Shown here: one piece after another, positions 2,977 through 34,599 of the stretch | Layout of the letters: each line of letters starts with the position of its first letter | Numbering within the stretch: position 1 is the first letter of the stretch | Made by a program: the position numbers and the translations under genes | IMG/VR virus record: IMGVR_UViG_3300049846_001558 | Span: 1-40,996 of that record | DNA length: 40,996 nt | Origin: a virus | Reading direction: 5' to 3' (one strand) | Notes under the pieces: model-generated | What the model was told of the DNA's origin: nothing | Seen by the model: only the letters and a program-made list of their open reading frames with translations | Database searches by the model: none

Positions 2977-3075
2977 TGGTGCCTCTGGCAGGACTCGAAC
3001 CTGCACACTCAGGCTTATCTGGCCTGTGCTTTGGCGGAGTATAAGGCCGCTTCTTTACCATTAAGCTACAGAGGC
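2977..3075 (-). tRNA. Atypical tRNA-Ile-like gene with ~24 extra bases
   Basis: Acceptor GCCTCTG/CAGAGGC, A73, encoded CCA and T arm GCAGG-TTCGAGT-CCTGC are normal. Two readings are possible. Removing about 24 bases in the D loop leaves an ordinary tRNA with anticodon loop CAGATAA (GAT, but A instead of U33). Alternatively, the inserted hairpin loop CTTATAC is the anticodon arm (TAT), followed by a 29-base variable arm. Both readings give isoleucine. Confidence 0.6.
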
Positions 3076-5087: not shown

Positions 5088-6242
5088 TTATATCAACTCA
5101 GATAACTTTGTTTTTCGTATTTCATCTAATAGACCAATGTGTTGCTTGCGTATCATTTCTAATTTAGGTTTGTACACATGAGTCTTAAGAGCTTCCAATG
5201 CAATTTTGGCTGCAGGACTAGAAATTGTTTCTAGTTCATTGGCAAACTGTTGAATTCTTTCCTTAGATACCGAATCCAGCGTTAGGTGCAACGGAGAAAA
5301 CAACGGGGTAAACCTTAGCTCAAGTCCTTGTGCCCGAGTCCATTGAATCAAAGGAATCAATGTCGCAACACTAAATGCTTGAAGAACATGGTTGATCTTT
5401 ATACTGATGTTAGGCAATTCTTTGTAACGGTGTATGTTTTCTACTACACGATTCCAGTCAGAATTAAATCTAACCATATCATTATGATCTTCAATGCCTT
5501 CCAGACTGACTGTAACATTTACATGTTTAAATTTTTTCAGTATTTCTATTAGACGAGTGTTAGTGCTGTTGGCATTGGTTATCATAGTTAGCCGAACATT
5601 TTCAGGGTTAGGAAGGTTAGCCAACAAACGAGTTACATAGGGTATTATTGTTGGTTCTCCTCCAGTTAAGATTATTTCTTTCAGATCGTCTTTGATTAGA
5701 TCAGTGAAACTTTTAAATTCTTCAGATTCGGGCCAATTAAAGTCACTTGTGTTTTGAGACTTGATAAAAATGTTTGAATAACCAGGCTTCATGATGATTT
5801 GATCAAATTTTTCAAATTTTTGCCTGTGCAGTTTGTATTCTGTGGAAATCTGACTTGAATTTTCTCCGTTGCACATGACGCATTTGAGATCACACAAATT
5901 CCCCAGTTTAAATTCCACGCTGGTAAGTTTGGAAGCATCTCTGGTAAGCCATTTGTTGTACATCATGCGCTGACTGGATTGACCTATTTCTTCTTGTCTC
6001 CAACAAAGGCGGCATTGCGGTAATTTTATTCCGCTGTCAAGATCCTGTTTAAATTTTTTTAACTGAGCAGAATTTTTATATTCTTCCAATTGAGTAAATT
6101 TAAATTCTTGATCCAAATCATCCTTTGTCCAAACACAACAAGGTTCTATATACCCGTTTGGTGTTAGATTTATATGATGATGTATTGCCGCACAAAAAGT
6201 TGAAGTCATAAACTTACTTATATAGACCAAAAGTACTGCCAT
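5088..6242 (-). CDS. Twitch-type radical SAM protein, 384 aa
   Basis: The radical SAM [4Fe-4S] motif is GNLCDLKCVMC (Cys117, Cys121, Cys124), followed by the GGEP SAM-binding segment (LTGGEPTIIP). N-terminal FCAAIHHHINLTPNGYIEPCC and CRLCW look like an auxiliary cluster region moved to the front, as in other phage twitch proteins. AGGAG lies six bases before the ATG. An attenuator-like leader (6339-6552) precedes the gene and probably controls it. Substrate unknown; homologous architecture occurs at 15749 and 33273. Confidence 0.85.
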   Translation of the reverse strand: MAVLLVYISKFMTSTFCAAIHHHINLTPNGYIEPCCVWTKDDLDQEFKFTQLEEYKNSAQLKKFKQDLDSGIKLPQCRLCWRQEEIGQSSQRMMYNKWLTRDASKLTSVEFKLGNLCDLKCVMCNGENSSQISTEYKLHRQKFEKFDQIIMKPGYSNIFIKSQNTSDFNWPESEEFKSFTDLIKDDLKEIILTGGEPTIIPYVTRLLANLPNPENVRLTMITNANSTNTRLIEILKKFKHVNVTVSLEGIEDHNDMVRFNSDWNRVVENIHRYKELPNISIKINHVLQAFSVATLIPLIQWTRAQGLELRFTPLFSPLHLTLDSVSKERIQQFANELETISSPAAKIALEALKTHVYKPKLEMIRKQHIGLLDEIRKTKLSELI

Positions 6243-10928: not shown

Positions 10929-11846
10929 CTAATTTAACAATCTAATGTTGTTGTTGACAACAAAGTTTCTTATGCGACTGTTGTTGTCAAGAGCCGCCTG
11001 TAGATCAGAACGACTTGTACTTGCTACCACAAACAAACCAGCCTTCTTTAATTTTTCTCTCAAGTCAGGATTATCAAATGCTGCGGACAACAGTCGTGTG
11101 TATTTGCTTTTAAGACCTGGTTCTGTTGATCTAGCAATAACCACTCCTAGATAGCTGTCAAAGGGAAATTTTTCTTTGAACACCTGATTCCAAGTTGGCA
11201 ATTGTATTCCATCAAGGTTGGCATGACTGGCCATAACAAAAATCAAATCAGGATGATCCACAAAGCCTCTCACCGTTGGGTAATTGGCAAACATACAGTC
11301 TAGACTACCGCCTAGCATGTCATTGACTGCTGTGGCACCACCGCGGCTGTAAGGCACTATGACATGATTTTGTAATCTTAATCTTTTGACTAGAGCTTCG
11401 GTGGCCAAGTGTTCGCTGCTGCCATAACCAGCAACACCAAAATTCAATTGCATATTTGGTGCAATGTCTGTAATTGATCTTATGTTCTTTTTCTTATTGC
11501 AAACTAGTACACTGGGCATGGAGCCCACTACGCCAATTAATTCTAGGTCTTGGTCTGGATTATATTCCAAATCTTTGCCAAACATTAGAACATTGTTTAC
11601 ATAGATTTGCCCCATGGTAGCAACCATAATTGTTTTGGCTTCCAGCAAGTGTTTGGTTGCCAAACGACCCTGGGCCCCAGGTCTATTAACCACTACAAAT
11701 TCATTGTTCATGGCCTGATTTAAATGACGGGTCACAATATCACTTGGCCCGCCCGGTGCGTGATGAACCGTGAATTCAGCGGGCTGTGACCAACATGCTG
11801 TGGTTGCAAATAAACCAAAAAATAATGCTAATAATCTTGTTTTCAT
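10929..11846 (-). CDS. TctC/Bug-family periplasmic solute-binding protein
   Basis: After a signal sequence (MKTRLLALFFGLFATTACWS) the protein shows Bug-family features: HHAPGGPSDIVTR near the N-terminus, FGVAGYGSSEHLATEAL, VPYSRGGATAVNDMLGGSLDCMF and a C-terminal block. Length 305 aa is typical. In bacteria these proteins deliver carboxylates to TctAB transporters; none is encoded nearby. The end of the leader (TTAC-W) could be a weak lipobox. It is unusual on a phage and probably host-derived. It may feed the host's transporter or act otherwise in the periplasm. Confidence 0.85.
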   Translation of the reverse strand: MKTRLLALFFGLFATTACWSQPAEFTVHHAPGGPSDIVTRHLNQAMNNEFVVVNRPGAQGRLATKHLLEAKTIMVATMGQIYVNNVLMFGKDLEYNPDQDLELIGVVGSMPSVLVCNKKKNIRSITDIAPNMQLNFGVAGYGSSEHLATEALVKRLRLQNHVIVPYSRGGATAVNDMLGGSLDCMFANYPTVRGFVDHPDLIFVMASHANLDGIQLPTWNQVFKEKFPFDSYLGVVIARSTEPGLKSKYTRLLSAAFDNPDLREKLKKAGLFVVASTSRSDLQAALDNNSRIRNFVVNNNIRLLN

Positions 11847-15723: not shown

Positions 15724-15752
15724 AGTATAGACTAATTCGAATCAATTGTCAA
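15724..15752 (-). promoter_or_regulatory. sigma70 promoter of phosphatase-psiE-PP-loop operon
   Basis: TTGACA (15747-15752), 17 bases, TATACT (15724-15729), overlapping the stop of the radical SAM gene upstream. Confidence 0.75.
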
Positions 15753-16999
15753 GATTCAAGTAGAGGCAAACCAAAGGTTTTTTCAAAGCTTTCGCCGCGG
15801 ATTGTGTCAAGCTCTTGTGTTACTCTAAAAAACTCTTCTGGCAGAAATGGTTTTGGTAAATTAGCAAGGCTTGTTCTAATATTTTCTAGTTCGTTTTTAA
15901 AAACTTTCCAATTATCGGCCGTAAGTATTTCAATGGCTTGATCCAATTGTGTTAATAACCTGTCTTTTAGATATAGCGGAGCATCTCTAAAATTCATGCC
16001 ATGTGCTAAAACAGAGTAACACTTAATAGAAATGTTTTTGTTTTGATCTGATAATTCCATTAGAAACTTGGCCAAGTTAGCAACATCTAACAATGTATAC
16101 ACTGAAATGGCCACTGTTATCTGAGGTTTAAATGGCTCGCCAAGAGCATTGAATTTTCTAACATTTGCACTAACAGTATTCCAACTTACACCATGTCTGA
16201 TATATTCAGCTGTGGGTCCTACTCCGTCTATGCTCATTACTAATTCTACAGATCTGAACTTAGACAGTCTTTCTACAAACAAAGGATTATATACGCTACA
16301 ATTGGTAAATGTTTCAATACGCACCCTAGATTGCATATTGTTTTCCAACAAGAAATCTAGGTAGTCGTAATATTCCTTAATAAGGAAAGGTTCACCGCCA
16401 GTGAAACATACCTTATTGAGATTTTGCAACAGCTCTGGATCTTTAAGCCCTGCAATTTTATCTTCGGTAATTTTTAATAAAGTATGCTCGCGTGTATTAA
16501 ACAAGTCGCCCGGATTCAAATGCTCATGTGCAGGCAGGTTATGTTTTAATTTTTCTTTGGCCCATTCTGAACTAGAAGTTTCATCACACATTCTGCATTT
16601 CATGTTACACAAGTTGCTGAATCTCAACTCGATTCTTCTGGGTCTGGTTGGTGTGTCTATATTAAGTTTGTTGTAAAACCATTGGTGTTCATAGTATGGC
16701 TCTGGACCCATATTGTAGTAATTCCAAAATGCACCACGAGTACTTTTGAGTCCAAGATCTTCTTTGCGTTTACAGTTGCTACAGGCCGAGGGCACTTTGC
16801 CATCCAGTAATTCTTGCTTTAAATTTTTTAGCCAGTCGCTTTTTAAATACTCACTAGGAGTCATATTCAAGTGTGCATTGCGAATAAGGTGACAAGGGCT
16901 AGGAGAGTTAATTTGATAATAAATGTGGCTCCAAGGTGCAGGGCACATAAACTTTTCGCGAAATTTAGTGAGCTTCTTTGTGCTATTTTGATCTTCCAT
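15749..16999 (-). CDS. Twitch-type radical SAM protein, 416 aa
   Basis: FSNLCNMKCRMC (Cys131, Cys135, Cys138) binds the radical SAM cluster and CFTGGEPFLIKEYY is the SAM-binding GGE block. The N-terminal MCPAPWSHIYYQI and CSNCKRKEDLG resemble the other twitch proteins here. GTAAATA at 17005-17011 lies five bases before the ATG. It is nine bases downstream of another radical SAM gene. Substrate unknown. Confidence 0.85.
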   Translation of the reverse strand: MEDQNSTKKLTKFREKFMCPAPWSHIYYQINSPSPCHLIRNAHLNMTPSEYLKSDWLKNLKQELLDGKVPSACSNCKRKEDLGLKSTRGAFWNYYNMGPEPYYEHQWFYNKLNIDTPTRPRRIELRFSNLCNMKCRMCDETSSSEWAKEKLKHNLPAHEHLNPGDLFNTREHTLLKITEDKIAGLKDPELLQNLNKVCFTGGEPFLIKEYYDYLDFLLENNMQSRVRIETFTNCSVYNPLFVERLSKFRSVELVMSIDGVGPTAEYIRHGVSWNTVSANVRKFNALGEPFKPQITVAISVYTLLDVANLAKFLMELSDQNKNISIKCYSVLAHGMNFRDAPLYLKDRLLTQLDQAIEILTADNWKVFKNELENIRTSLANLPKPFLPEEFFRVTQELDTIRGESFEKTFGLPLLES

Positions 17000-17007
17000 G
17001 ATTGTAT

Positions 17008-18474
17008 TTACATCCTTAATAGACGATTATAGTAATCGTCGCGGCGTACCTTAATGCGCTGTTCAATGTCTGCTTTGGTAAATGAGTGTCTGTGCTGCTT
17101 TTCAAAGCGCCACTTGGGAATTCCCAGCTGTAGTAATTGTACTATTTGCCAGGAACCATGTCTGGCATTAAGAGGACCCAAAGCCGGCAACAATTCCTCA
17201 TTGAGGAAAGTCAATGCTTCTCGCTTGTGTCCCCAATCTGGATGATGCCATTGGTCATTGCTCCTAAAGGGAAAAGTATATCCGTATTTTTCAGCATTGC
17301 GATCGAACTCACTGAGATGTGTGCCAGACCCTGCTCGTGGATTGTGTAACCCAAGAATGTGAGGACTCATGTTATACATATCATTCTCGCCAAACCATTT
17401 TATCCAGCTTCTGGCTTCATCCTTGCTGTCACCAGGTAGGCCAACAATAAAGGCCAGGGTTTGGAATACTTCTTTTTTCCAAATATTATTGTATAGTTCT
17501 GGCAAGTATTCTCGACCCGAGTTATAACTCCATCCTTTACCAACTGCTTGTGCGCCTGGACCCAAACTCTCGATACCATGGAAGCAAGAAATTAGGCCTG
17601 ATTCTTTAAGCATGTGAGGAACATCAGGAAACCTATGCAGTAGGTCAGCTCTAAGGTATCCAGTGTACTCAATTTTAAATGGCAGACTAGTTACCATGCG
17701 GTGCCAGGCCTGCATTTTTACTTCAGTGTCGTTAAAGGTATCGCAAATAATGTAGTAGCGAGTTGTACCCCAATTTTCATAATTGTAGATCATCTCCTCG
17801 CGGACTAATTCCATTTCTCGAAGATAATCCAGCTTGCCGCGACCTAGCAGCAAGTGATTACAAAACTTACATTTGAAGATACAGCCACGGCTTATTTCAA
17901 TAGGCAAGGCTTCGCCAGGTAATATAGCGTCATCCTTGTGCCATTTAAAATCGTCATTGACGATGTCGAACCTGTCCCTGTCAGACTGGTACGAGCGTAC
18001 TGGATCACCCTCTCTGTTAAAAATTAATTTATATCGAGGTTCGGGACCTTTCCCTGCAAAAAAGGTAACCAAGTCCATGAAGGTATCTTCGCCGTATTCC
18101 TTGATTACTCCCCAGGCCAGCGGAGTTGTAGGATTATCTACACAGGCCAGTCCATAGCCTCCGTAGATTAACTTCAATCCAGGGAATCGATTTTTAATCT
18201 CATTGAGACAGTTGATCAGTATGTCTGGCATTTTTCTGTAAGGCCAGTCTAGAGTAAATGTTGTGCTTAATCCCAGTACCAGGGTATCAGCATCAACAAA
18301 CTTTTCTAGAAGTTTACTGAGCTCATCTTGAGATAGATAATTGATATGGTCAATTACCTGTGCAGTATAACCATTTTTACGGCATTGGTGGGCAATTTTA
18401 TAAGCACCAATGGTACGGTAAAGGCTCATACCGCCAACGGTGGGACCACTGTTTAATAGAACTATCTGGGACAT
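17008..18474 (-). CDS. Radical SAM protein of the B12-binding-like class, 488 aa
   Basis: IEISRGCIFKCKFCNHLL (Cys198, Cys202, Cys205) is a class B-like radical SAM motif. It follows an N-terminal Rossmann-like region (GGMSLYRTIGAYKIAHQCRKNGY ... LVLGLSTTF ... LIYGGYG) shaped like a cobalamin-binding domain but without an obvious DxHxxG. FHGIESLGPGAQAVGKG and IVGLPGDSKDEA fit the C-terminal half of the barrel. CTAAATA lies four bases before the ATG. Reaction unknown. Confidence 0.8.
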   Translation of the reverse strand: MSQIVLLNSGPTVGGMSLYRTIGAYKIAHQCRKNGYTAQVIDHINYLSQDELSKLLEKFVDADTLVLGLSTTFTLDWPYRKMPDILINCLNEIKNRFPGLKLIYGGYGLACVDNPTTPLAWGVIKEYGEDTFMDLVTFFAGKGPEPRYKLIFNREGDPVRSYQSDRDRFDIVNDDFKWHKDDAILPGEALPIEISRGCIFKCKFCNHLLLGRGKLDYLREMELVREEMIYNYENWGTTRYYIICDTFNDTEVKMQAWHRMVTSLPFKIEYTGYLRADLLHRFPDVPHMLKESGLISCFHGIESLGPGAQAVGKGWSYNSGREYLPELYNNIWKKEVFQTLAFIVGLPGDSKDEARSWIKWFGENDMYNMSPHILGLHNPRAGSGTHLSEFDRNAEKYGYTFPFRSNDQWHHPDWGHKREALTFLNEELLPALGPLNARHGSWQIVQLLQLGIPKWRFEKQHRHSFTKADIEQRIKVRRDDYYNRLLRM

Positions 18475-33272: not shown

Positions 33273-34244
33273 TTATTTGAGTTTGGCAGTTATGGCGCGG
33301 CGGCAAGATATCAGTTGATTTCTAAACTGGTTAAAATTTGGTAAAGTAAGAATCTCTAATGCAGCATCAATGCTTTCAACAGTTTTTGGGATTTCGTCTT
33401 TGTCGATGTTAAACACAGACAAGTGTGCTGGCCGGCGTGCTGTATGAATATTAAAAGTGCATGATGGTTTTTTAGTTGCTATATCAAAAAAATACTTTGC
33501 CAAAGAATGAATGTCTGACAATGATATTGTGGTCAGAGTGGTATGGAATTGAATACGGATTGGAAGCTCTAAAAACTTATTGACATTTTCGTTGACTACT
33601 GTCCAGTTGGTCCCAGTTCGTTGTGCAACTGCTGTGTCACCTACTGCGTCAATGCTTAAATGTAGCCTAGTGTTGAACTTCAAAATCTTTTCTATAAAAA
33701 TTGGATTGTATACGCTGGCATTTGTGTATATGCGTAGGTTGAGATCTGGTTTGCCAAGCATTGCTAAATGATCTAATAACTCATAGTAATGCTTTATCAG
33801 CATTGGTTCGCCACCAGTGAGCACTAGAGTTTTTAAATTTTGAGCAATTAGTAATATTTCATTGAAGTTTTCATCTGTTATGTTAAAAACTTCGTTTGCA
33901 ATCAATGAACTTGACTCTGCATTGCACATCTTACATTGAAAATTACAAAGATTGCTGGTCCGTAGTTCCATGTAATCTATAGTAGAAGTTATGTTCTCTC
34001 CATATAGCCCAACCATGTGCTGTCTAACACTTTGTAAACCTGCGTCCTCTAAGCGTTTGCAGGTAATACAGGTGTCGTCAAATTCCTCGTTTAAAAATTT
34101 TTGCCTTAGCTCTTTGAGATAATCACTGTTAACAAATTGCATTGGTGTCATGCTAAATTTCTTAGCACTGACACAACATACTGCTGCTTTGTCAACATGA
34201 TAATAAATTGAACGCCAGGGCGCAGGACAGAAGAATTTTCTCAT
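33273..34244 (-). CDS. Twitch-type radical SAM protein, 323 aa
   Basis: TSNLCNFQCKMC (Cys100, Cys104, Cys107) and LVLTGGEPMLIKHYY give the radical SAM core. N-terminal MRKFFCPAPWRSIYYHVDKAA and CITCKRLEDAGLQS are close to the protein at 15749. GTAAATA (34250-34256) ends five bases before the ATG, which has no Shine-Dalgarno. Directly downstream of the tmRNA terminator. Substrate unknown. Confidence 0.85.
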   Translation of the reverse strand: MRKFFCPAPWRSIYYHVDKAAVCCVSAKKFSMTPMQFVNSDYLKELRQKFLNEEFDDTCITCKRLEDAGLQSVRQHMVGLYGENITSTIDYMELRTSNLCNFQCKMCNAESSSLIANEVFNITDENFNEILLIAQNLKTLVLTGGEPMLIKHYYELLDHLAMLGKPDLNLRIYTNASVYNPIFIEKILKFNTRLHLSIDAVGDTAVAQRTGTNWTVVNENVNKFLELPIRIQFHTTLTTISLSDIHSLAKYFFDIATKKPSCTFNIHTARRPAHLSVFNIDKDEIPKTVESIDAALEILTLPNFNQFRNQLISCRRAITAKLK

Positions 34245-34260
34245 ATAGGTATTTACACTA

Positions 34261-34286
34261 AGAAAGCCCACCGAAGTGGGCTTTCT
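34261..34286 (-). terminator. Terminator of the tmRNA gene
   Basis: AGAAAGCCCAC-TTCG-GTGGGCTTTCT, eleven pairs with a stable UUCG loop. A stem rich in A and T at the base could act in both directions. Confidence 0.85.
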
Positions 34287-34289
34287 TGG

Positions 34290-34564
34290 TTTGTTGGGTT
34301 ACAAGGCCTTTCCTGCCCCGCTGGGTTACGCCGCTAGGCGTAGATCCTCAGAGTAATAATTGTCGTTTGCAATTATTGAGTTTGCTTGATTTAGGGTCAT
34401 CGCCTACCCTGCTGTCCACTTCAATACTCATTGCCCTGTCGATCCTAGTTCAGGCCCATCATAAGCATATTAGTTGTATCCATTTGTCCAATATGCTTAT
34501 GGTGGACCTGGCCGGTACTGCCCCGGCGTCCAGAACACCTTTTTCGTTGCTTCATACAGCAATA
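34290..34564 (-). ncRNA. ssrA: tmRNA, circularly permuted two-piece form
   Basis: Read on the minus strand the acceptor piece comes first: T arm GCCGG-GGCAGTA-CCGGC (34511-34527), then CAGGTCC-A-CCA ending at 34500. After a 42-base spacer folding into a 12-pair hairpin comes the coding piece starting GGGCCTG at 34457. The two ends form a seven-pair acceptor stem with the G3-U70 pair recognised by alanyl-tRNA synthetase. The tag frame (34326-34370), with its resume codon GCA in a hairpin loop, encodes ANDNYYSEDLRLAA and TAA. The T loop is not the usual TTCRANY. The RNA rescues stalled ribosomes with SmpB, presumably the host's. Confidence 0.9.
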
Positions 34565-34570
34565 AAGATA

Positions 34571-34599
34571 TTTATACTACAGTTGCCTAGTATTGTCAA
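34571..34599 (-). promoter_or_regulatory. Promoter of the tmRNA gene
   Basis: TTGACA (34594-34599), 17 bases, TATAAA (34571-34576), which is also part of TATAAATA, so both host sigma70 and a late phage factor could use it. Confidence 0.7.

What the first reader, a model, noticed from the sequence alone, without database searches (positions are those of the whole stretch)
34290..34599. Phage-borne, circularly permuted two-piece tmRNA with tag ANDNYYSEDLRLAA
The acceptor half with CCA precedes the coding half, and a 42-base hairpin spacer joins them. Ends pair in a seven-base acceptor stem with G3-U70. The tag frame starts ANDN and ends LAA, and the resume codon sits in a hairpin loop. Permuted ssrA is known from alpha/beta-proteobacteria and some cyanobacteria. 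Its presence on a phage suggests the phage keeps ribosomes free, or redirects tagging, during infection. A promoter with both sigma70 and late features suggests strong expression.
Basis: partly seen in the sequence, partly recalled or inferred. Interest (0 to 1): 0.9.

Follow-up and report, generated by a model that had tools for sequence, protein, structure and literature searches.

The report
Phage-borne hybrid two-piece tmRNA gene
A large bacterial virus carries its own ribosome-rescue RNA, encoded back to front and made as two pieces; such viral genes were already known, but this one joins loops of the alphaproteobacterial type to a body of the betaproteobacterial type, and relatives in other viruses hide tiny membrane-protein genes inside the part that is cut out.

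Summary
A complete circularly permuted (two-piece) tmRNA gene lies on the minus strand (about 34565 to 34259): Rfam tmRNA_permuted 135.7 bits, beta_tmRNA 114.3, alpha_tmRNA 89.8, all above cut-off. Acceptor stem, G3-U70, encoded CCA, hairpin spacer, tag frame and terminator-like hairpin are present. The contig is phage: a 177.7 kb viral contig contains it at 100% identity and carries a terminase closest to PA5oct/Paride-like jumbo phages.

Phage-borne two-piece tmRNAs are already known (Melnitz; huge phages, some with SmpB), and I found more than 120 viral matches for each of two T-arm patterns, so 0.9 overrates it. Unusual here: D and T loops of alphaproteobacterial type on a body whose nearest relative has canonical loops, and a 14-aa tag whose pattern is absent from 84,980 genomes. 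Most likely it works as an ordinary tmRNA using host SmpB during infection; this is inferred.

Two finds in relatives go further: some kin carry smpB beside ssrA, and many viral tmRNA spacers encode a conserved 22-27 aa membrane micropeptide (pN/pS 0.19), for which I found no report. The window's 42-nt spacer has none.

The parts
34594..34599 (-). -35-like box TTGACA, 17 nt from the -10-like box
   Evidence: read directly from the sequence; not listed by the pattern scan because of its rule on the -10 box
34569..34576 (-). -10-like / T4-late-like TATAAATA
   Evidence: direct reading; same motif in the 91% relative L015 and in Melnitz
34500..34561 (-). acceptor piece (T arm, 3' acceptor strand, discriminator A, encoded CCA)
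   Evidence: RF04321 alignment
34511..34527 (-). T arm GCCGG-GGCAGTA-CCGGC with alphaproteobacterial-type loop GGCAGTA
   Evidence: direct reading; loop type is that of alphaproteobacterial permuted tmRNAs
34458..34499 (-). intervening sequence (spacer), 12-bp hairpin directly after CCA, then TGAT before the mature 5' end
   Evidence: same layout in viral relatives
34259..34457 (-). coding piece (5' acceptor strand, alpha-type D loop, tag frame, 3' domain, terminator-like hairpin)
   Evidence: RF01850 match to 34259, ARAGORN
34438..34450 (-). D-loop region AACTAGGATCGAC, alpha type
34326..34370 (-). tag reading frame ANDNYYSEDLRLAA plus stop TAA
34259..34287 (-). terminator-like hairpin AAAGCCCACTTCGGTGGGCTTT
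   Evidence: direct reading; 3' end of the beta_tmRNA match; not listed by the pattern scan

Best explanation
It is a functional phage-encoded two-piece tmRNA. A precursor starts just downstream of a sigma70-like promoter, the 42-nt spacer hairpin is cut out by tRNA-processing enzymes, and the two pieces stay together through the 7-bp acceptor stem and the helix formed by the 5' leader (TGCTGT) and the coding piece (ACAGCA). Alanyl-tRNA synthetase charges it through G3-U70. Host SmpB and EF-Tu carry it to stalled ribosomes, translation resumes at GCA, and the protein receives ANDNYYSEDLRLAA, whose LAA end sends it to host ClpXP-type proteases. The phage gains a supply of free ribosomes while host messages decay, as part of a large translation kit (28 tRNA genes in this 41 kb). 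The gene is a hybrid: D and T loops of alphaproteobacterial type on a beta/viral-type body. Shown: gene anatomy, conservation of pairing and tag frames in viral kin, phage location, hybrid make-up. Inferred: transcription, processing, charging, SmpB use, degradation, benefit.
For: Three Rfam models above cut-off. In 126 distinct viral permuted tmRNAs all 7 acceptor pairs form; pairs 4-6 vary, with 126/126 paired against 69-79 in shuffles; G3-U70 in 126/126. Ten-residue viral tags show pN/pS 0.35, and 117 of 126 viral tags end in AA, 105 in LAA. A viral contig of 177.7 kb contains the window's gene at 100% identity and has a terminase 53.5% identical to that of PA5oct/Paride-like jumbo phages. 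No SmpB in that contig or in a 285 kb relative that also has a tmRNA, hence host SmpB. Hybrid: nearest relative L369 (bootstrap/SH-aLRT 100/95) shares a 39-nt identical block of the coding piece but has canonical loops.
Against: No expression, processing or charging data. The 177.7 kb twin is linear and may lack the part with smpB. Few close relatives: the 91% relative L015 is cut off by its contig end just after the acceptor piece, so its coding half was not seen. The acceptor 5' end in the 126 genes was located by best pairing, which inflates pairing somewhat, though not which pair types occur or the G-U at position 3.
Confidence: 0.82

Rival explanations
1. It is a retuned tagger: a functional tmRNA whose phage-specific tag changes the fate of tagged proteins (other protease, adaptor or partner), rather than merely adding rescue capacity.
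For: The tag pattern ANDNYYxED(L) is absent from 84,980 genomes. Of 88 distinct viral tags only one was seen in the bacterial tmRNAs sampled. 24 of 126 viral tags are 23-33 aa, and one group shares an 18-codon extension with pN/pS 0.19.
Against: The window's tag keeps the ordinary LAA end and resembles alphaproteobacterial tags such as ANDNVALVEDVRLAA. Tags also drift in bacteria, the bacterial sample is small, and the extension group is not the window's kin.
Confidence: 0.2
2. It is a decoy that titrates SmpB or EF-Tu and shuts off host trans-translation.
For: A tRNA-like-domain-only tmRNA of phage DS6A is discussed as an inhibitor (PMC4131195).
Against: This gene has a complete tag frame, stop codon and LAA end, and 10-aa tag frames in viral kin are under purifying selection. 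Some kin bring their own SmpB, which a titrating decoy would not need.
Confidence: 0.06
3. It is host DNA: contig contamination, or a remnant of integration at host ssrA.
For: tmRNA genes are common phage integration sites, and several SmpB hits in phage records look like prophage edges.
Against: It sits inside a 177.7 kb viral contig with terminase, and ribonucleotide reductase and PAAR/tail-lysozyme genes lie around it; relatives keep it near the same 606-aa gene; full-length covariation. I did not look for an integrase.
Confidence: 0.03

Closest known systems
Methylophilales phage Melnitz ssrA (MZ577097.1; PMC9004378)
   Same: phage-borne permuted tmRNA; identical T loop GGCAGTA; nearly the same resume hairpin ATAATTGCAAACGACAATTAT; 14-aa tag starting ANDNY
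   Different: Melnitz passes the alpha model only (106.7; beta 25.0), has a 142-nt spacer, tag ANDNYVPVDYALAA, and per the paper a glutamine riboswitch; no such riboswitch in this window
Rfam RF04321 tmRNA_permuted, with RF01849 alpha_tmRNA and RF01850 beta_tmRNA
   Same: full-length match above cut-off to all three
   Different: passes both clade-specific models; of ten other phage records tested, only G008 also did
tmRNA and SmpB in huge phages (PMC7162821)
   Same: large phages with ribosome-rescue parts
   Different: no SmpB found in this phage's 177.7 kb contig; smpB next to a permuted ssrA occurs only in some kin here
Alphaproteobacterial two-piece tmRNA (Caulobacter type)
   Same: D and T loops, ANDN-type tag
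   Different: body of the coding piece and leader group with the beta/viral clade

Membership tests
permuted (two-piece) tmRNA, RF04321 | covariance model match above cut-off over full length | tested here: met
   135.7 bits against 47, model 1-213
permuted (two-piece) tmRNA, RF04321 | acceptor piece upstream of coding piece, joined by an intervening sequence | tested here: met
permuted (two-piece) tmRNA, RF04321 | 7-bp acceptor stem with G3-U70 and CCA | tested here: met
   direct reading; 126/126 viral genes
permuted (two-piece) tmRNA, RF04321 | tag frame with resume codon, stop, and AA at the C-terminus | tested here: met
   ANDNYYSEDLRLAA*
permuted (two-piece) tmRNA, RF04321 | two mature RNA pieces, alanylated, SmpB-bound | not testable with these tools
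   needs RNA from infected cells
alpha_tmRNA RF01849 | score above cut-off | tested here: met
   89.8 against 50
alpha_tmRNA RF01849 | groups with alphaproteobacterial sequences in a tree | tested here: not met
   falls in the beta/viral clade, sister to L369
beta_tmRNA RF01850 | score above cut-off | tested here: met
   114.3 against 84
beta_tmRNA RF01850 | canonical T loop TTCGAnT with D loop GGTTTCGA | tested here: not met
   GGCAGTA and AGGATCGA
phage smpB-ssrA pair (some kin) | smpB within the same phage | tested here: inconclusive
   no PF01668 hit in 177.7 kb, but that contig may be incomplete
phage tmRNA with spacer-encoded membrane micropeptide | Shine-Dalgarno plus ATG and a transmembrane ORF filling the spacer | tested here: not met
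   42-nt spacer, not among the TM-ORF genes

The most novel reading that the evidence does not exclude
Phage permuted tmRNA genes are compound genes. In many viruses the spacer that is cut out encodes a conserved single-pass membrane micropeptide (for example MNDNLNSLAIGVIVVLVVFALVLL): its Shine-Dalgarno site starts right after the CCA, and its stop codon ends one base before the mature coding piece, so one transcript would give both a ribosome-rescue RNA and a membrane peptide. Other viruses keep different small genes there (a DUF2061 protein in L229). The window's gene would be a stripped member with the micro-gene absent, or replaced in its 91% relative L015 by another ORF.
Probability: 0.7. 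Interest if true: 0.75.

Novelty: new variant of a known kind. Interest (0 to 1): 0.5.

Why it matters
It adds a jumbo-phage case in which the tRNA-like loops and the body of a tmRNA look to be of different lineages. Loops of both types recur inside one viral clade and nearly always match each other (122 of 126), a natural test of which D- and T-loop contacts must co-evolve in tmRNA. The comparison also showed that viral tmRNA tags are far more varied than those of the bacterial genes sampled, that some phages carry smpB beside a permuted ssrA, and that the excised spacer is used as coding space in many viruses. These make the old question of what phages do with ribosome rescue testable.

Tried and rejected
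(1) First viral pattern scan was mis-spaced by one base and found only unrelated loci; not used as evidence. (2) The idea that rare betaproteobacterial two-piece ssrA came from phages, suggested by three bacterial sequences scattered in the viral clade, was dropped: with 16 bacterial betas they need only 2 changes. (3) A glutamine riboswitch as in Melnitz: none. (4) Host from the tag: no bacterial match, so the host stays open; a TctC gene and the beta/viral body hint at Burkholderiales, the loops and ANDN tag at Alphaproteobacteria. (5) The hairpin round the resume codon as a general feature: 7 or more pairs in only 14 of 126. (6) Formal test of D/T-loop co-change on a tree built without those loops: 4-5 of 5 independent pairs agree, none disagree, but 5 pairs cannot reach p 0.05. 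(7) Near-DNA search against phages found no close named relative.

Full report
WHAT IS THERE. The gene is on the minus strand. ARAGORN calls a permuted tmRNA with tag ANDNYYSEDLRLAA. Rfam matches it full length with tmRNA_permuted (135.7 bits, cut-off 47) and beta_tmRNA (114.3, cut-off 84), and alpha_tmRNA also passes (89.8, cut-off 50). The acceptor piece ends in an encoded CCA at 34500; a 42-nt spacer (34499-34458) folds as a 12-bp hairpin (z -6.0) followed by TGAT; the coding piece begins at 34457. The acceptor stem has 7 pairs with G3-U70. The tag runs 34370-34326. A TTGACA, 17 nt, TATAAATA promoter-like stretch lies at 34599-34569; a simple scan misses it only because it demands T at the last -10 position.

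IT IS ON A PHAGE. An IMG/VR contig of 177.7 kb contains the neighbouring genes and the tmRNA at 100% identity over every stretch compared, up to 13 kb. It has a terminase whose nearest named relatives, at 53.5% identity, are PA5oct/Paride-like Pseudomonas jumbo phages. Neighbours in the window are ribonucleotide reductase, PAAR/tail-lysozyme, endolysin and radical SAM genes, and there are 28 tRNA genes in 41 kb. Relatives of the adjacent 606-aa protein often have a permuted tmRNA near it.

IT IS CONSERVED AS A tmRNA. From pattern scans of viral contigs and ARAGORN I assembled 126 distinct viral permuted tmRNAs (125 from IMG/VR plus Melnitz). In all 126 the seven acceptor pairs form; pairs 4-6 vary with full pairing (126/126 against 69-79 in shuffles); G3-U70 is invariant; the spacer closes with a stem directly after CCA far more often than in controls (mean 9.5 against 5.1 pairs). 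The T-arm pattern was part of the selection, so T-stem counts are biased, and the coding start was placed by best pairing. Ten-residue tags show pN/pS 0.35; 117 of 126 end in AA and 105 in LAA.

IT IS A HYBRID. Loop GGCAGTR is the type found in alphaproteobacterial permuted tmRNAs (most hits are Alphaproteobacteria, including Pelagibacteraceae, with a scatter of others). In trees the window gene nevertheless falls in a clade of viral and betaproteobacterial genes, sister to L369 (ANDAFFGENRLAA; 100/95, 77% identity), which has canonical loops while sharing a 39-nt identical stretch of the coding piece. In a tree built without these loops the alpha-type loop still needs 8 changes, at least 5 forced by supported branches. 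D and T loops match in type in 122 of 126 viral genes. Whether this is recombination of a cassette or repeated co-mutation is not settled; a tree-based test has too few independent pairs.

TAG AND HOST. The tag pattern ANDNYYxED(L) is absent from 84,980 bacterial and archaeal genomes, and the exact DNA occurs only in the 177.7 kb contig among viral contigs. Of 88 distinct viral tags only one is shared with 160 bacterial permuted tmRNAs; most of these are alphaproteobacterial, so sharing with betaproteobacteria is under-counted. In the Burkholderiales order only 15 of 399 genomes have a permuted form above E 1e-20. The host is not identified.

SmpB. No smpB was found in the 177.7 kb contig or in a 285 kb relative with a tmRNA. 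Five viral contigs carry an 85-100% identical smpB: three within about 60 nt upstream of the permuted tmRNA, two further away, one of them on a 105 kb contig with terminase and UvsX. The protein matches solved SmpB structures over nearly its whole length (7ljp, E 3e-33).

SPACER MICROPEPTIDES IN RELATIVES. Viral spacers are longer (median 86 nt) than those of the bacterial genes sampled. Transmembrane ORFs of 20-45 aa start in 15 of 126 viral spacers against 0.6 expected from shuffles and 1 on the reverse strand. A scan for CCA + TAAGGAGAYTNG + TATG found 28 loci; all 28 have a 22-24 aa transmembrane ORF whose stop ends one base before the mature coding piece, with pN/pS 0.19 in frame (24-aa forms) against 0.64 and 3.8 out of frame. 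The scan fixed the SD and ATG, not the peptide. No Pfam or credible PHROG match for the short peptides; one longer spacer ORF is DUF2061. I found no report of this in the papers searched; the tmRNA database paper mentions a tRNA gene in one spacer. Translation is not shown. The window's own spacer has no such ORF.

VERDICT. Observation confirmed; interpretation partly supported; a new variant of a known kind. The precedents are Melnitz (PMC9004378, which lists 53 two-piece phage tmRNAs), huge phages with tmRNA and SmpB (PMC7162821) and 79 phage tmRNA sequences in the current database (PMC11915505). Processing, alanylation, use of host SmpB and degradation by ClpXP-type proteases follow from established knowledge of tmRNA and are inferred here.

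Noticed in passing
L294, L317, L323, L337, L566-L589 (spacers of viral permuted tmRNAs): Conserved 22-24 aa single-pass membrane ORF with Shine-Dalgarno inside the tmRNA spacer, ending one base before the mature coding piece; pN/pS 0.19 among the 24-aa forms. Function unknown.
   Followed up: partly
L021, L023, L020 (smpB close upstream of ssrA), L042, L043: Phage-encoded SmpB of 141 aa next to or near a permuted tmRNA gene.
   Followed up: partly
L304, L307, L319, L342, L345, L348, L354, L360, L368, L375, L392, L393: Very long viral tmRNA tags (28-31 aa) sharing an extension like ANADTFDFSAMSFTGNTV before a tail that in some is host-like (ANDSRFALAA); pN/pS 0.19 over the extension.
   Followed up: partly
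L015:9436-9670: In a 91% relative of the window, the acceptor piece is followed by an ORF (MYRVEYNGGGCYVCIVKSADLETK...) open to the contig end; the coding piece is not seen. Could be a long spacer gene or a split gene.
   Followed up: no
L229, spacer of its tmRNA: Spacer ORF of 69 aa is a DUF2061 membrane protein (PF09834, E 3.7e-21).
   Followed up: no
window 5088-6242, 15749-16999, 17008-18474, 33273-34271 (minus): Four radical SAM ORFs in one 41 kb phage fragment.
   Followed up: no
window 10929-11846 (minus): TctC-family (tripartite tricarboxylate receptor) ORF in a phage.
   Followed up: no
window 2977-3075 (minus): tRNA that ARAGORN gives a four-base anticodon (ctcc), in a cluster of tRNA genes.
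   Followed up: no
L006:8048-8122, L007:4134-4208, L008:4134-4208: Relatives carry a tRNA with CUA anticodon (called tRNA-Pyl by ARAGORN), a possible amber suppressor.
   Followed up: no
L047 (NZ_CP080769.1, Cupriavidus megaplasmid): A permuted ssrA gene (tag ANDEKFALAA) on a bacterial megaplasmid, not annotated in the PLSDB table, which lists no RNA genes.
   Followed up: partly
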